A stretch of DNA of 64,000 nt from Neisseria bacilliformis (GTDB lineage Bacteria; Pseudomonadota; Gammaproteobacteria; Burkholderiales; Neisseriaceae): NCBI RefSeq assembly GCF_014055025.1, contig NZ_CP059571.1, positions 2,108,001 through 2,172,000 on the forward strand. The letters run 5' to 3'. The translations under genes were made by a program, and so were the position numbers. Shown here piece by piece: positions 5,651-58,936 of this stretch. The notes below the pieces were generated by a model. The model worked only from the letters and a program-made list of their open reading frames with translations, was not told the DNA's origin and searched no databases. Each line of letters opens with the position of its first letter. Position 1 is the stretch's first letter.

Positions 5651-5660
5651 GGGGGGGGGG
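5651..5660. repeat. Homopolymeric G10 tract (C10 on the minus strand)
   Basis: Ten consecutive G on the plus strand lie 31-40 bases upstream of the GTG start of the minus-strand lipoprotein gene. Tracts of this kind in neisserial promoters and leaders slip during replication and switch expression. I see no convincing -10 or -35 around it. Confidence 0.6.
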
Positions 5661-8576: not shown

Positions 8577-8602
8577 ACCGCCGCGCCGGAAACGCAAACA
8601 AA

Positions 8603-8645
8603 GAGGCCGTCTGAAAACCGTAAAACACGGTTTTCAGACGGCCTC
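8603..8645 (+). terminator. Inverted DUS pair after the transporter operon
   Basis: GAGGCCGTCTGAAAACCG and its complement form a long hairpin 27 bases after the stop of the small subunit. Confidence 0.75.
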
Positions 8646-8654
8646 TGCCCTTAG

Positions 8655-8890
8655 GTAGGGTGTGTGGCGCAAACCACGCACGCGGTTGCTGCGGACGGCG
8701 GCATTCGGTGTTGGAAAACGATAGGCCGTCTGAAAAACGGGTTTGCATTTTTCAGACGGCCTTTGCGCAATAAAAACCGCGTGCGTCGCCTCGTGGCGAC
8801 ACACCCTGCCTTAGGAGGCTGAATCCGCGTACACGGCGGAGGCCGTCTGAAAGGCATAGGCCGCGTGCGTGGCTGCGCCGCACACCCTGC
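8655..8890. repeat. REP-like pair around a DUS hairpin, plus a single REP
   Basis: A GTAGGGTGTGTGGC unit at 8655-8685 faces an inverted partner at 8775-8808. A DUS inverted pair (8723-8762) sits between them. A further half unit lies at about 8861-8890. There is no gene in 8577-8934. Confidence 0.7.
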
Positions 8891-8934
8891 TTCGGCTACG
8901 GCGGATTCGGCATAGCGGGACATGGAGCGGTTCG

Positions 8935-10350
8935 TCAGAACTGTTTGGACACGTCCAAAAACACGCGGTTTTCGTGGCGGCGGTAGTAGAAATGGTTGCT
9001 TGCCAGATACGACCATGTCCAGTTCAGGTGCGGGGTGAAGCTTTTCCACGACAGTTTTTTGTGGCCGACGGCGGCGAGGACGAAATATTCCGTGTCGCGG
9101 CGGCGGATGTTGAAAAAATCCTCGCTGCGGTAAAGGCTGCGGCGGATGCTGCCGTTAAGCGAAGTAAGCAGGCCGTCGCCGCCTGACCAGCGGCGCGTCC
9201 AGCCTGCGCGCAGGCTTGCGTGGCGGTAGGCTTCCGCAGGGTCGCGGGCGTTTTCGCGCCCCGCGCCCGCGCCGAACACGAAATACTGCTGCGGCGAGCT
9301 TTGGTACACCAGCGAGAGTGCGCCGCCGTGGCTTGCGCCGTCGAGATAGTCGCGTTCTTCATGCTTTTTATAGCCCGTCTGCCAGCTTGCAAACAGCATG
9401 GTTTTCGGCGACAGATTGTGCGAGCGGCGCAGCACGCCGCCTGCGGTGTGCGAATAGGCTTCCGTGCCGTACCAGCGTTTTTCGGCAAAGGGCGTCAGGG
9501 CGGTTTCGCCGCTGCCGCTGCGGTACACCGGCCCGGCTTCGATGCGGGCGTTCAAATCGTCGTAATCGTGCGCGTCCCAATAGAATTTGCCGTAAACGGA
9601 AGCCTGCACCCGCGCCGCCCAGTGTTTTTTTACGGGCAGGGTTTTGACGGCGGAGGCATCGTAGCCCAGCCCGTGCGCGGCGCGGGGTTCGGGGAAACGC
9701 CAGGGGCCGTATTCGCGCTCTTTCGGCGCGCGGCCGACATTGCGATCGGCGAGGTAGTAGGCGTTGGCGTCAAACTGCCAGGCGCGGTCGCGTTTGAGGT
9801 AGTCGGAAAAGCTGTTGAGAAAGGCGGCCGCATCGGGCGGCAGTTCGGAGGTTTCCTTCACTTCCGCCACTTCGGCGGCGGCTTCGCGCGTTTGGCCGCT
9901 TTGCGACAGGGTGAGCGCGAGTTGCAGGCGTACGGGGGCGTAGCCCGGGTTTTGCGCAAGGATGCCGCGCAGCTTTTCTTCGGCGCGGGCATATTGCCCG
10001 TCTTCGCGCAGCAGGAAGGATTCGGCGTAGTCTTCCAGCACCGCGTCGCGCCGTTCTTCGTCCAAACGGCGGTAAAGCGGCAGCAGGAAGCGGATGTTTT
10101 CAACCTGCTGCCGCGCCACGGCGGTGTCGAGGACGTTTTGCAGCAAATCGGGCTGCGCGATCAGCTCGTCTTCGCTCATGGAAACAGAGCCGTCGTCTCC
10201 TTCATGTTCGGACGCGGGCAGACGGGCTTCGTGCTGCATTTGGCGGATTTGGCTACGGTTGGGGTCGGGGTTGTCGTCGTGCGGCGTGGAAAGGGGATCG
10301 GCGGCAGCCGCGCAGGCGGCGGCGCAGAGTATCAGGATGGGATAGCGCAT
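8935..10350 (-). CDS. Slam: surface lipoprotein assembly modulator (DUF560)
   Basis: Slam proteins sit in the outer membrane and move certain lipoproteins to the cell surface. This 471-residue protein has the family layout. It starts with a signal peptide (MRYPILILCAAACAAAA) and a periplasmic TPR-like helical region at about residues 75-190 (for example ARAEEKLRGILAQNPGYAPV). A C-terminal beta-barrel follows (about 200-471), with alternating aromatic strands and a terminal phenylalanine (FLDVSKQF). It lies 112 bases downstream of a lipoprotein gene of the Slam-client type on the same strand, the usual gene pair. Whether it is Slam1- or Slam2-like cannot be decided by eye. The start ATG at 10350 has only a poor Shine-Dalgarno. 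Confidence 0.88.
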   Translation of the reverse strand: MRYPILILCAAACAAAADPLSTPHDDNPDPNRSQIRQMQHEARLPASEHEGDDGSVSMSEDELIAQPDLLQNVLDTAVARQQVENIRFLLPLYRRLDEERRDAVLEDYAESFLLREDGQYARAEEKLRGILAQNPGYAPVRLQLALTLSQSGQTREAAAEVAEVKETSELPPDAAAFLNSFSDYLKRDRAWQFDANAYYLADRNVGRAPKEREYGPWRFPEPRAAHGLGYDASAVKTLPVKKHWAARVQASVYGKFYWDAHDYDDLNARIEAGPVYRSGSGETALTPFAEKRWYGTEAYSHTAGGVLRRSHNLSPKTMLFASWQTGYKKHEERDYLDGASHGGALSLVYQSSPQQYFVFGAGAGRENARDPAEAYRHASLRAGWTRRWSGGDGLLTSLNGSIRRSLYRSEDFFNIRRRDTEYFVLAAVGHKKLSWKSFTPHLNWTWSYLASNHFYYRRHENRVFLDVSKQF

Positions 10351-10360
10351 GGCGGTAAAG

Positions 10361-10399
10361 AGGCCGTCCCCGCCTGTGCGGGGATGGCGTTTCTGAAAA
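10361..10399. repeat. Uptake sequence split by a 25-base dRS3-like hairpin
   Basis: AGGCCGT (10361-10367) and CTGAAAA (10393-10399) would join to a perfect DUS. Between them is the 25-base insert CCCCGCCTGTGCGGGGATGG plus CGTTT, a hairpin similar to dRS3. The same insert at the same point occurs at 31641, 42554 and 46386. Confidence 0.75.
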
Positions 10400-10462
10400 A
10401 AAAGGGAAAAACCCGTCTGGCCGGTATGGCGGACGGGCTGACGCTTGGCAAGGCGGACGGGC

Positions 10463-11426
10463 TTACTGTTTTTTCGCGCCGAAGGAGCCGACTATGCCAA
10501 GATAGTTTCCATTATTCTCGCCATAATCAGTTTGTCCTTTAAAAATGCCGCCCAACTCGGCCGCCTTCGGGCCGTAGAAATTGCCCTGCATTTCCACTGC
10601 GCCTTTTGTGCCGCTAAACGAGTTGCCGCTGATTTTTCCGGATAAAGCCACATAAGCCTTGGAAGGTGCCACATCAGATGCGTCATAAATCTTTCCGTCA
10701 ATAGTTTTTTCGCCGAAATCAACATTAAATAAAGACGCATTAAGATACCCTGCGAGAGCAGTTTCGGTATGCACATAACCTTTATAGGTGGCCTTGCCGG
10801 ATGCGGGCACATCATTGGCGACTGTCAGCTTGCCGTAAGCAAATTCATACGTTTTTTCCTCAGCTCCACTTGAAGTGAAAACTGTGGCCATACCGAAACG
10901 GACATAGCTCAAGTTGCTTCCGCTAACTTCGATACTGCCATTTTTATCAATAACTTTCAGTAATTTACCGGCTGTCATTCCCAGGCGGACAACAGTAATC
11001 TTATGGCTGCCAATCGTGATAACGGAATCTTTGTCGCCGCTGATACTGGCTTTTGTTACTTTTTCGGGCAAATGCCTAGCCAAACCAGTAACATCATAAG
11101 CATTGCCGCCTTGGGCTGAGGCAGACGTATTCGGTTTGGACGGTGTACTTGGTGTGGAGGGTTTCGACGGTGTTGTCGGATTGGAAGGCTTCGACGGTGT
11201 GCTCGGCGTTGCCGGTTTGGAGGGATTGGCAGGCTGCGAGGGCGTGCCCGGATTGGAAGGTGTAGAAGGTTTCGACTGGTTGTTGCTGCTGTTGCCGTTT
11301 TGGCTGTTCTGGTTGCCGTTGGTGTTCGGCGTGGGGTTTACATTGGGCCGGTCGTCCCCCCCCCCCGCTGCTGCACGCGGCGAGGCCGAGGACGGAAGCA
11401 AGGGCGGTCAGTTTCAATTTTTTCAT
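10463..11426 (-). CDS. Slam-dependent surface lipoprotein, frameshifted at a poly-G tract (probably phase-OFF)
   Basis: The front, MKKLKLTALASVLGLAACSS, is a clear lipoprotein signal starting at 11426. Eleven G (coding strand) follow at once. With eleven, the frame leaves the gene and stops at 11094. With ten or thirteen it joins the long downstream frame, giving about 320 residues. That frame has a disordered linker of P-S/T-rich repeats (about residues 25-95) and then an eight-stranded-barrel type domain. It ends in AELGGIFKGQTDY and a final IVGSFGAKKQ. The end closely matches the second lipoprotein at 58148. It is the likely client of the slam gene just downstream. A tract right after the lipobox is a known phase-variation design (as in hpuA). 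A sequencing error in the run is the alternative. Confidence 0.8.
11356..11366. repeat. Phase-variation tract, 11 C (G11 on the coding strand)
   Basis: The run lies directly after the codons for the lipobox C-S-S in the minus-strand lipoprotein gene. In-frame lengths would be 10 or 13; 11 puts the gene out of frame. Confidence 0.85.
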
Positions 11427-11478
11427 AATGCAGTTTCCTTAAAATAAATATTGTGAAATGTCTTAACGACGAGGCGCA

Positions 11479-11484
11479 ATTATA
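11479..11484 (-). promoter_or_regulatory. Possible -10 box of the lipoprotein-slam operon
   Basis: On the minus strand a perfect TATAAT lies 53 bases before the ATG at 11426. No good -35 is visible 16-18 bases upstream, so the promoter may need an activator. The stretch is AT-rich compared with its surroundings. Confidence 0.35.
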
Positions 11485-11532
11485 ACGGAAAACATTGTTT
11501 CTGTGTATGATTTCTTTAAGTTTTGTTGCGAA

Positions 11533-11576
11533 GAGGCCGTCTGAAAAACTGTGTTTTGCGGTTTTCAGACGGCCTC
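11533..11576 (-). terminator. Inverted DUS pair after the polyamine-binding protein gene
   Basis: GAGGCCGTCTGAAAA faces its complement. On the minus strand it lies 27 bases after the stop at 11603. Confidence 0.7.
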
Positions 11577-11602
11577 TTCATGCTTCCAATCAGGCACTCG
11601 GT

Positions 11603-12742
11603 TTAGCTACCCGCTTTGATTTTCTGCCACAAATCAACGGTTTGTTTTTTCGCCTCATTGCTCATCTGCGGCATCACAAAGCCGTCGGCCATGTCCTGGT
11701 CGGTGGGGAAAATCGAGCGCACTTTGGTGAGCTTCTGATCCATCAGGGCTTTGGCCGGCAGGCTGGCGGGGGCGAAGGTTACGTAGTTGCCGTTTTTCGC
11801 CGCCACTTCCGGCTGTAAGGTGTAGTCGATGTATTTGTGCGCGTTGACCACGTTTTTCGCGTCGGCCGGAATCAGCCATGATTCAATCCAAAAGCCCATG
11901 CCTTTGGGGTTGAGCACTTCGATGCCGAATTTGTTGCCTGCTTCTTCGGAACGTTTTTTCGCCATGTTCAAATCGCCGCCGTTGCCCACCGCCAGGCACA
12001 CGTCGCCACGCGCCAGCTCGTCGATCAGCGAGGGGCTGAACCGTTTGATGTCGGGGCGCACTTTTTTCAGCACTTCGCCCGCTTCGGCGATGTCGGCGGG
12101 ATTTTTTCCGGCCGGGTCTTTGCCCAAATATTTGAGCAGAATCGGGAACACTTCGCTGGGGCTGTCCCACATGGCGATACCGCAGCCTTTGAGTTTGGAC
12201 GTGTATTCGGGCTTGAACAGCAGATCCCAGCCGTTTTCCGGCAGCTTGCCGCCCAAAGCCTCTTTGCCCTTGGCGGTAATCGCCACGGTGTTCACGCCGG
12301 AGAAATAGGGCACGGCGTATTCGTTGCCCGGATCGGCAGTGGCCAGCATTTCGAGCAGCTTGGGATTGATGTCTTTATAGTGTGGCAGCAGGTCTTTGTT
12401 GATTTTCTGATACGCCCCCGCCTGAATCTGGCGCGGCAGGAAGGCGATGCCGGGCACAACCAAATCGTAGCCCGATTTGCCGGTCAGCACCTTGGCTTCA
12501 AGGGCTTCGTTGTTTTCGTAGAGGTCGTAAACCAGCTTGATGTTGTTGGCTTTTTTGAAATCGTCAACGGTTTCTTCATCGACGTAGTTCGACCAGTTGT
12601 AGATATTCAGCGCGTCGGTCGCGCCGCTATTGGCGGCAGTTGCAGGGGTTTGGCCTTCGGCTTTCGGATCGGTCTGTCCGGCGTTTCCACCGCAGGCGGC
12701 CAGTGCCAGTGCAATCGTTGCAGTCAATAAGGTTTTTTTCAT
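11603..12742 (-). CDS. Spermidine/putrescine ABC transporter substrate-binding protein (PotF/PotD family)
   Basis: A 379-residue periplasmic lipoprotein that captures polyamines for an ABC importer. It starts MKKTLLTATIALALAACGG with a lipobox at LAAC. The mature part shows family motifs: LNIYNWSNYVDEETVDDF, then the VVPGIAFLPRQIQAGAYQ region. The late IESWLIPADAKNVVNAHKYI is also typical. Upstream in-frame ATGs at 12751 and 12793 are poorly placed; the AAGGA at 12755-12759 suits the ATG at 12742. The permease and ATPase genes are not adjacent, so this is an orphan binding protein here, as is common in Neisseria. Confidence 0.9.
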   Translation of the reverse strand: MKKTLLTATIALALAACGGNAGQTDPKAEGQTPATAANSGATDALNIYNWSNYVDEETVDDFKKANNIKLVYDLYENNEALEAKVLTGKSGYDLVVPGIAFLPRQIQAGAYQKINKDLLPHYKDINPKLLEMLATADPGNEYAVPYFSGVNTVAITAKGKEALGGKLPENGWDLLFKPEYTSKLKGCGIAMWDSPSEVFPILLKYLGKDPAGKNPADIAEAGEVLKKVRPDIKRFSPSLIDELARGDVCLAVGNGGDLNMAKKRSEEAGNKFGIEVLNPKGMGFWIESWLIPADAKNVVNAHKYIDYTLQPEVAAKNGNYVTFAPASLPAKALMDQKLTKVRSIFPTDQDMADGFVMPQMSNEAKKQTVDLWQKIKAGS

Positions 12743-58147: not shown

Positions 58148-58936
58148 TTACTGCTTTGCCGCACCGAACGCGCCGGTGATTTTCTTCGCGTCGTTGCGGA
58201 AGGTGCCGCCCATCTCGGCCGCACCACTGCCGAAGAAATTGCCCTGCACCACGGTTTTGTCGGACGACGTGCCTTTGAAGCTGTTGCCGTTGATGTTGGC
58301 GGACACATTAAACGTATTGGCCGCCGAAGCCAGCTTGCCGGTCAGCGTTTTCTTGCCAAAATCGACATCGAAATTCGCGCTTTTGCCGTTGTCGGCGGCG
58401 GTTACGATTGCGCCGGATGCGTCGGTGTAAACATGATAGCCGGAAAACTTGGCCGTGCCGCTTGCGGGCATATTCTGCGTCAGCTCGCCCTGCGCGAACA
58501 CGGTTTTGCCTCCGCTGCCGTTTTCAATCACGCCGTATTTCATGCTGCGCACATGATCACCGCTCACCGCGCCGGCAAACCCCTGTTTGCCGTTTATCGT
58601 CGTGTTGCCGTTTAAGACATAAAATGTTCCCGCGCTGATGCCGCCGCCAAAATCCAAGGGGATTTCCTGATTACCGATTTTCAGCACGTTGACGGCATTG
58701 GTGGCCGGCGTGGCCTTGTTGGCTTCGACGCTGCCGCCGATTTTGGCGGTGTAGTAGTTGCCCGCGATGGGATTTTGCATCTGGCTGCCGTTGTTGCCGC
58801 TGTTGCTGCCGCCGTTCTGGTTTTGGCTGCCGCCGTTTTCGTTCAGCGAAACATTGGGGCCGTCGCCGCCCCCGCCGCCGCATGCCGCCAGCAGCACAGC
58901 CGCGCCAATCAGAATGCCCAAAGACGTTTTGTTCAT
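58148..58936 (-). CDS. Slam-dependent surface lipoprotein (second copy, in frame)
   Basis: A 262-residue lipoprotein. The signal MNKTSLGILIGAAVLLAACGG is followed by a short Gly/Asn/Gln-rich linker and a barrel-type domain. Its end, AEMGGTFRNDAKKITGAFGA plus AKQ, closely matches the phase-variable lipoprotein at 10463. So do INGNSFKGTSSDKTVVQGNFF and the HVYTDASG region. It is probably carried to the surface by Slam, but no slam gene is next to it. The glycine codons after the lipobox are mixed (GGC and GGG), so there is no slippery tract. GGAGGGG precedes the ATG at 58936. Ligand unknown; it is not recognisably TbpB, LbpB or fHbp. Confidence 0.8.
   Translation of the reverse strand: MNKTSLGILIGAAVLLAACGGGGGDGPNVSLNENGGSQNQNGGSNSGNNGSQMQNPIAGNYYTAKIGGSVEANKATPATNAVNVLKIGNQEIPLDFGGGISAGTFYVLNGNTTINGKQGFAGAVSGDHVRSMKYGVIENGSGGKTVFAQGELTQNMPASGTAKFSGYHVYTDASGAIVTAADNGKSANFDVDFGKKTLTGKLASAANTFNVSANINGNSFKGTSSDKTVVQGNFFGSGAAEMGGTFRNDAKKITGAFGAAKQ

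What the first reader, a model, noticed from the sequence alone, without database searches (positions are those of the whole stretch)
10463..11426. Phase-variable, currently OFF, surface lipoprotein next to its own Slam translocon
Seen: a lipobox followed at once by G11, which shifts the frame; G10 or G13 would restore ~320 residues. The slam gene lies 112 bases downstream on the same strand. Known: hpuA and other neisserial surface genes switch through such tracts, and Slam moves lipoproteins of this fold to the surface. Inferred: the client flickers ON/OFF while the translocon gene stays intact. The client does not look like TbpB, LbpB, fHbp or HpuA, so the ligand may be new.
Basis: partly seen in the sequence, partly recalled or inferred. 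Interest (0 to 1): 0.72.

Follow-up and report, generated by a model that had tools for sequence, protein, structure and literature searches.

The report
Frame-shifted surface lipoprotein beside Slam gene
A Neisseria genome carries a surface-lipoprotein gene that a run of eleven Gs, placed just after its lipid-anchor site, puts out of frame in this assembly, next to an intact gene for the kind of protein that exports such lipoproteins; this closely resembles the known haemoglobin-receptor switch hpuA, in a different lipoprotein.

Summary
On the minus strand an ATG at 11426 starts a signal peptide ending in a lipobox. Two codons after the anchor cysteine come eleven Gs (11356-11366). The assembled frame closes after 110 residues; another frame, open from 11407 to 10463, carries a TbpB-type barrel. 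An intact Slam gene follows 112 bases on. The tract is no mere by-product of a glycine linker: of 49 distinct lipobox-glycine sites in my loci, 47 have G runs of at most 5; the exceptions are this gene (11) and hpuA (10). So it sits where hpuA's phase-variation tract sits, but beside a Slam of another clade. In its seven-member Slam clade the client is broken in three genomes by three lesions, while all seven Slam frames are open. Tract variation could not be tested: no reads or second strain. Verdict: probable phase-variable Slam client, a new member of a known kind, ligand unknown.

The parts
11373..11426 (-). Signal peptide and lipobox (LAAC) of the client
   Evidence: ORF; sequence
11356..11366 (-). 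G11 homopolymer two codons after the anchor cysteine; the frame break
   Evidence: control of 49 sites
11094..11426 (-). Client reading frame as assembled, 110 aa, without barrel
10463..11407 (-). Open second frame holding the rest of the client
11102..11341 (-). Pro/Ser/Thr/Asn-rich stalk with a 27-base repeat (2.7 copies at 11133-11206)
10469..10810 (-). TbpB_B_D barrel domain (PF01298, E 2.6e-24)
11479..11507 (-). Promoter-like site TACACA-17-TATAAT (10 of 12) before the client
   Evidence: consensus match only (2 sites found in 8600-11700, 0.9 expected)
10511..10538 (-). Weaker promoter-like site AGGACA-16-AATAAT (9 of 12) inside the client's 3' end, about 160 bases before the Slam start
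   Evidence: consensus match only
10351..10462 (-). Client-Slam gap with two predicted hairpins
   Evidence: z -2.5, folded 10345-10470; the terminator scan lists none here
8935..10350 (-). Slam gene, 471 aa, TPR_Slam plus SlipAM barrel, frame intact
58148..58936 (-). Orphan paralogue: intact single-barrel lipoprotein, possible second client in trans
   Evidence: the nearest listed Slam of this genome is the one of this finding

Best explanation
This is a contingency locus: a Slam-type surface lipoprotein, built as lipid anchor, disordered stalk and one TbpB C-lobe-like handle and barrel, whose expression is probably switched by slipped-strand changes in a poly-G tract just behind the lipobox. 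Shown here: the tract, its place, the closed frame in this assembly, the open frame with the barrel behind it, the intact Slam gene. Inferred: that the tract length varies in cells; that in the present state only a short lipoprotein without barrel (the part thought to direct cargo to Slam) is made; that with the barrel in frame the adjacent Slam displays it. Also inferred, the advantage: escape from antibody, or binding of a host ligand only when needed, as for hpuA.
For: Tract and frames. Barrel family and fold (pLDDT 76, pTM 0.77). Slam domains. Same kind of tract at the same site in hpuA of G004 and G014, a gene known to phase-vary (PMC3786947, passages; PMC7857515, passages). Of 49 lipobox-glycine sites only these two kinds reach 10. 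Two of the genome's other 7 long tracts lie inside TonB-dependent receptors; past one of them the C-terminal end reads on in another frame (by eye; families), so other surface genes carry such tracts here too. A published phasome survey uses poly-G of 9 or more as its cut-off (PMC5953494, passages). Listed completeness of 99.99% speaks against a frameshift-ridden assembly.
Against: No second strain, reads or population data, so variation itself is unseen. The number of tracts of 9 or more in the genome is not above a Markov expectation. Neither of the two nearest relatives of the client has the tract (G005, G016). A closed frame in one genome can also be a plain pseudogene, and in G005 the frame is broken without a tract. 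NCBIfam's Slam-lipoprotein model is under its cut-off for the downstream piece (65.5 against 80 bits).
Confidence: 0.72

Rival explanations
1. Assembly error: the homopolymer length is miscalled and the gene is in frame in the living strain.
For: Homopolymers are a common error of long-read assemblies (general knowledge); the genome is one contig.
Against: Completeness 99.99%. A length wrong by a base or two would still leave a long G tract, which is the mutable element, so phase variation would remain likely.
Confidence: 0.15
2. Decaying pseudogene: the client is lost for good and the tract is incidental.
For: In the same Slam clade the client is broken in 3 of 7 genomes, in two of them without any tract (frame change in G005, insertion sequence in G054).
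Against: The frame behind and through the tract is open over 314 codons with the complete barrel and a TbpB-like C-terminus; the one break found lies in a mutable tract.
Confidence: 0.12
3. Co-switching: the closed frame also lowers expression of the downstream Slam gene by polarity, so translocon and client flicker together. This can hold on top of the best explanation.
For: Same strand, 112-base gap; the better of two promoter-like sites lies before the client.
Against: The other promoter-like site (10538-10511, 9 of 12) lies about 160 bases before the Slam start and could serve it alone; hairpins in the gap could insulate the genes. No transcript data.
Confidence: 0.22
4. Slippage of RNA polymerase or ribosome on G11 makes a mixture, so the gene is never fully off.
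For: Long homopolymers allow transcript slippage (general knowledge); no call bears on it.
Against: For hpuA, with the same kind of tract, ON and OFF states were scored and compared with phenotype; the passages I saw tell of one mismatch, explained by a nonsense mutation (PMC3786947).
Confidence: 0.1

Closest known systems
hpuA with slam2 (Neisseria)
   Same: Single-lobe surface lipoprotein; poly-G tract directly after the lipobox; slam gene in the neighbourhood; phase variation known for hpuA (PMC3786947, passages)
   Different: Slam of another clade; client and slam on one strand here, on opposite strands in the two hpuA loci with tract; no TonB receptor among five larger neighbours tested; fold nearer the TbpB C-lobe than HpuA
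TbpB, C-lobe
   Same: Nearest by sequence and fold
   Different: One lobe only; the N-lobe is absent; no TonB receptor of the tbpA kind among five neighbours
T11SS cargo class 'disordered N-terminus 1' (PMC12282271, section 15 read, passages)
   Same: Lipoprotein with long disordered N-terminus, handle and barrel, found beside Slam/DUF560 genes
   Different: That paper's main text has no hit for phase variation, phase-variable, frameshift or homopolymer; I assign the class by description only
Slam-adjacent lipoproteins of Hooda 2017 (PMC5449769, abstract and passages)
   Same: Lipobox gene next to slam, barrel domain
   Different: No hit for phase or poly-G in the main text
Neisseria phasome (PMC5953494, passages)
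   Same: Poly-G of 9 or more in a surface gene of a Neisseria
   Different: No hit for Slam, transferrin or tbpB in the main text; its supplementary gene tables were not read

Membership tests
TbpB_B_D barrel proteins (Pfam PF01298) | Barrel domain over the Pfam cut-off | tested here: met
   86.6 bits against 26
Intact surface-lipoprotein gene (as assembled) | Signal peptide with lipobox in frame with the barrel | tested here: not met
   Lipobox and barrel are in different frames in this assembly; they are in frame in the relative of G016
Slam-dependent surface lipoprotein (NCBIfam NF041636) | Score over the curated cut-off | tested here: not met
   65.5 of 80 bits for the downstream piece; so not filed under this model
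Slam-dependent surface lipoprotein (NCBIfam NF041636) | Surface display depends on Slam | not testable with these tools
   needs cells
Slam / SlipAM (PF04575 with PF24575) | TPR_Slam and SlipAM domains over cut-off in one open frame | tested here: met
   93.1 bits (cut-off 35.2) and 226.8 bits (cut-off 22)
Simple-repeat phase-variable gene | G tract of 9 or more within or just before the coding region | tested here: met
   G11; cut-off from PMC5953494
Simple-repeat phase-variable gene | Tract length varies between cells or strains | not testable with these tools
   no reads; one genome per species
HpuA | Neighbouring slam is of the hpuA (slam2) clade | tested here: not met
   the five Slams beside hpuA-type genes form a separate clade (100/99)
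HpuA | hpuB TonB-dependent receptor beside it | tested here: not met
   five neighbours between 3765 and 15408 are UbiD, SNF symporter, solute-binding protein, PLA1 and DUF502; small ORFs there were not tested
TbpB | Two lobes, each handle plus barrel | tested here: not met
   one PF01298 stretch; single-lobe model of 213 residues

The most novel reading that the evidence does not exclude
The glycine codons behind the lipobox of Slam clients are a recurrent birthplace of phase-variation tracts: one arose in hpuA and one, independently, in this other client. In this Slam clade the client is under such strong pressure to be silent at times that it is shut by a switch in one lineage and by fixed lesions in others, while the translocon is kept, perhaps for other clients such as the orphan lipoprotein 47 kb away.
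Probability: 0.3. Interest if true: 0.5.

Novelty: new member of a known kind. Interest (0 to 1): 0.34.

Why it matters
If real, it extends on/off switching of Slam cargo beyond hpuA to a stalked single-lobe lipoprotein in a different Slam clade. Display of such proteins, one of which is a vaccine antigen in Pasteurella multocida (PMC10075479, abstract in the listing), could then not be judged from one genome. It also offers a test of whether a Slam is tied to one client or serves several.

Tried and rejected
Considered and rejected: that the tract simply reflects a Gly-rich linker (47 of 49 sites show no run over 5); that the gene is TbpB or HpuA (membership table). The test of GC by codon position was uninformative, because the barrel part is poor in GC (about 46% against 60% for the window) and shows no third-position bias. 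A claim that clients break more often than Slams was not pursued: Slam genes with stops or in pieces also occur in the genus, one of them in this genome (1577279-1577978).

Searches that led nowhere: plasmid records, no match; alignment A1 too diverse for a pattern scan; PDB search with the Slam, no match. The genome-contig scan gave 32 loci, none of which I could tie to the window's species, and the tool says that records of the window's own genome may be left out, so no strain comparison was possible. The species was not identified; I take the genus as Neisseria because a same-genus genome, G027, has a contig of the same length (242,520) as NZ_JAUKWH010000003.1, Neisseria sp. MVDL19-042950. 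No metagenome scan was allowed.

Both source lists were themselves cut at the end. Whether a client is in frame was judged by eye from the N-termini that one search prints; clients without lipobox there begin with an ordinary-looking signal peptide. Among the 49 sites a few are probably chance frames (for example the rows of L102 and L116), and the hpuA site of L181 was merged with that of L176. One search lost three Slams (L159, L178, L147), which my tblastn step did not find.

Full report
What is there. On the minus strand of the window an ATG at 11426 opens MKKLKLTALASVLGLAAC, a lipoprotein signal peptide with lipobox. Two serine codons later stand eleven Gs at 11356-11366. The assembled frame ends after 110 residues. 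A second frame is open from 11407 to 10463; its 312-residue reading has a stalk rich in Pro, Ser, Thr and Asn and then a TbpB_B_D barrel (residues 198-311, E 2.6e-24). After 112 bases follows a 471-residue Slam with TPR_Slam and SlipAM domains.

Is it more than chance? The genome, one contig of 2,492,712 bases, has 8 G/C runs of 9 or more: lengths 9, 10, 13, 10, 15, 10, 10 and 11. A third-order Markov model of the window gives about 10, 3 and 0 for lengths of at least 9, 10 and 11, against 8, 7 and 3 observed. So the total is ordinary and only the longest are in excess. The place is the telling part. In all loci held at the time I looked, by a simple pattern in six frames, for a lipobox followed within four residues by three or more glycines: 49 distinct sites, of which 47 have a longest G run of 2 to 5, one has 10 and one has 11. 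The one with 10 is hpuA (two genomes, merged), the one with 11 is this gene.

Comparison with hpuA. Among 46 genomes of the genus I paired TbpB_B_D genes with Slam genes closer than 4.5 kb, from lists that the search tool had cut at the weak end: 49 client genes, all looked at. Poly-G of 7 or more in the client's open frame or within 100 bases before it occurs in 4 of 49: this gene, hpuA of G004 and G014, and a client of G042. In the last the tract of 12 lies before the start codon, and that genome is listed as 85% complete. Eight pairs have client and Slam on opposite strands, which I call hpuA-type; 2 of these 8 have the tract, both in frame. The published hpuAC primer matches these two loci, so they are hpuA; for the other six the name rests on arrangement. 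hpuA phase variation by poly-G is established (PMC3786947 and PMC7857515, passages seen). A tract in only some lineages thus holds for the hpuA-type genes too; PMC5953494 (passages seen) says that novel phase-variable genes often occur in only one isolate.

The Slam and its relatives. In a tree of 35 Slams the window's is sister to that of G005 (100/100) within a clade of seven (98/96), each beside a single-barrel lipoprotein or its remains; the five Slams of hpuA-type pairs form another clade (100/99). All seven Slam frames are without stops. The client is broken in three of the seven: here at the tract; in G005 by a frame change between lipobox and barrel without any tract, where an assembly error cannot be excluded; in G054 by an 874-base insertion with perfect 28-base inverted ends and a DDE transposase. 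It is intact in G016, G081 (two copies), G082 and G066. With three lesions of three kinds this is a lead, not a statistic: among the 49 client genes of the genus 5 are broken in all (this one, one in G005, one in G015 by a stop in the signal peptide, two in G042), one is undetermined at a contig end, and Slam genes break too.

How it probably works. Slipped-strand mispairing in the tract would change the frame. Of the three frames behind the tract, one leads through the barrel and two close early. In the closed states a short lipoprotein without barrel is made, which Slam should not recognise, since the barrel is held to be the targeting part (PMC12282271). Of two promoter-like sites the better lies before the client and the weaker inside its 3' end, about 160 bases before the Slam start; both may be chance (0.9 expected). 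The gap has two predicted hairpins. So whether Slam expression falls with the client is open. An orphan paralogue at 58148-58936 is intact and could keep the Slam in use. G005 has a 21-base repeat (12.2 copies) in the stalk and this gene a 27-base one (2.7 copies); both units keep the frame, so stalk length may vary as well.

Verdict. Ordinary in kind, well supported in anatomy, untested in its key claim, the variation of the tract. In the titles and abstract openings listed by four full-text searches I saw no phase-variable Slam client named other than HpuA; of the papers opened I read passages or sections, not whole texts, and no supplementary tables.

Noticed in passing
window 5651-5660: G10 on the + strand, that is C10 about 40 bases before the likely start of a small lipoprotein on the minus strand; could be a promoter or leader switch. 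No Pfam match for the protein.
   Followed up: partly
L048 1501-1515 (genome place 1163058-1163072): G15 inside a TonB-dependent receptor with a His-rich stretch; past the tract the C-terminal end reads on in another frame. ZnuD-like by recall only.
   Followed up: partly
L046 1501-1510 (genome place 725087-725096): G10 in the plug region of another TonB-dependent receptor, in frame.
   Followed up: partly
L055 1501-1510 (genome place 1846471-1846480): G10 in an ORF with Hint / pretoxin-Hint matches, next to a topoisomerase B-subunit-like reading frame (the latter by eye).
   Followed up: partly
L121 2883-3756: IS4/5-type insertion sequence with perfect 28-base ends inside the client gene in a genome of another genus.
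   Followed up: yes
L022 and L036, upstream of the client: Runs of 18 and 20 A just before single-barrel lipoprotein genes, possible promoter switches.
   Followed up: no
window 10463-11055: The barrel part has about 46% GC in a window of 60%, which suggests import from a relative of lower GC.
   Followed up: no
window 1-64000: 116 exact copies, both strands, of AGGCCGTCTGAA, a Neisseria DNA-uptake sequence (count; name by recall).
   Followed up: no
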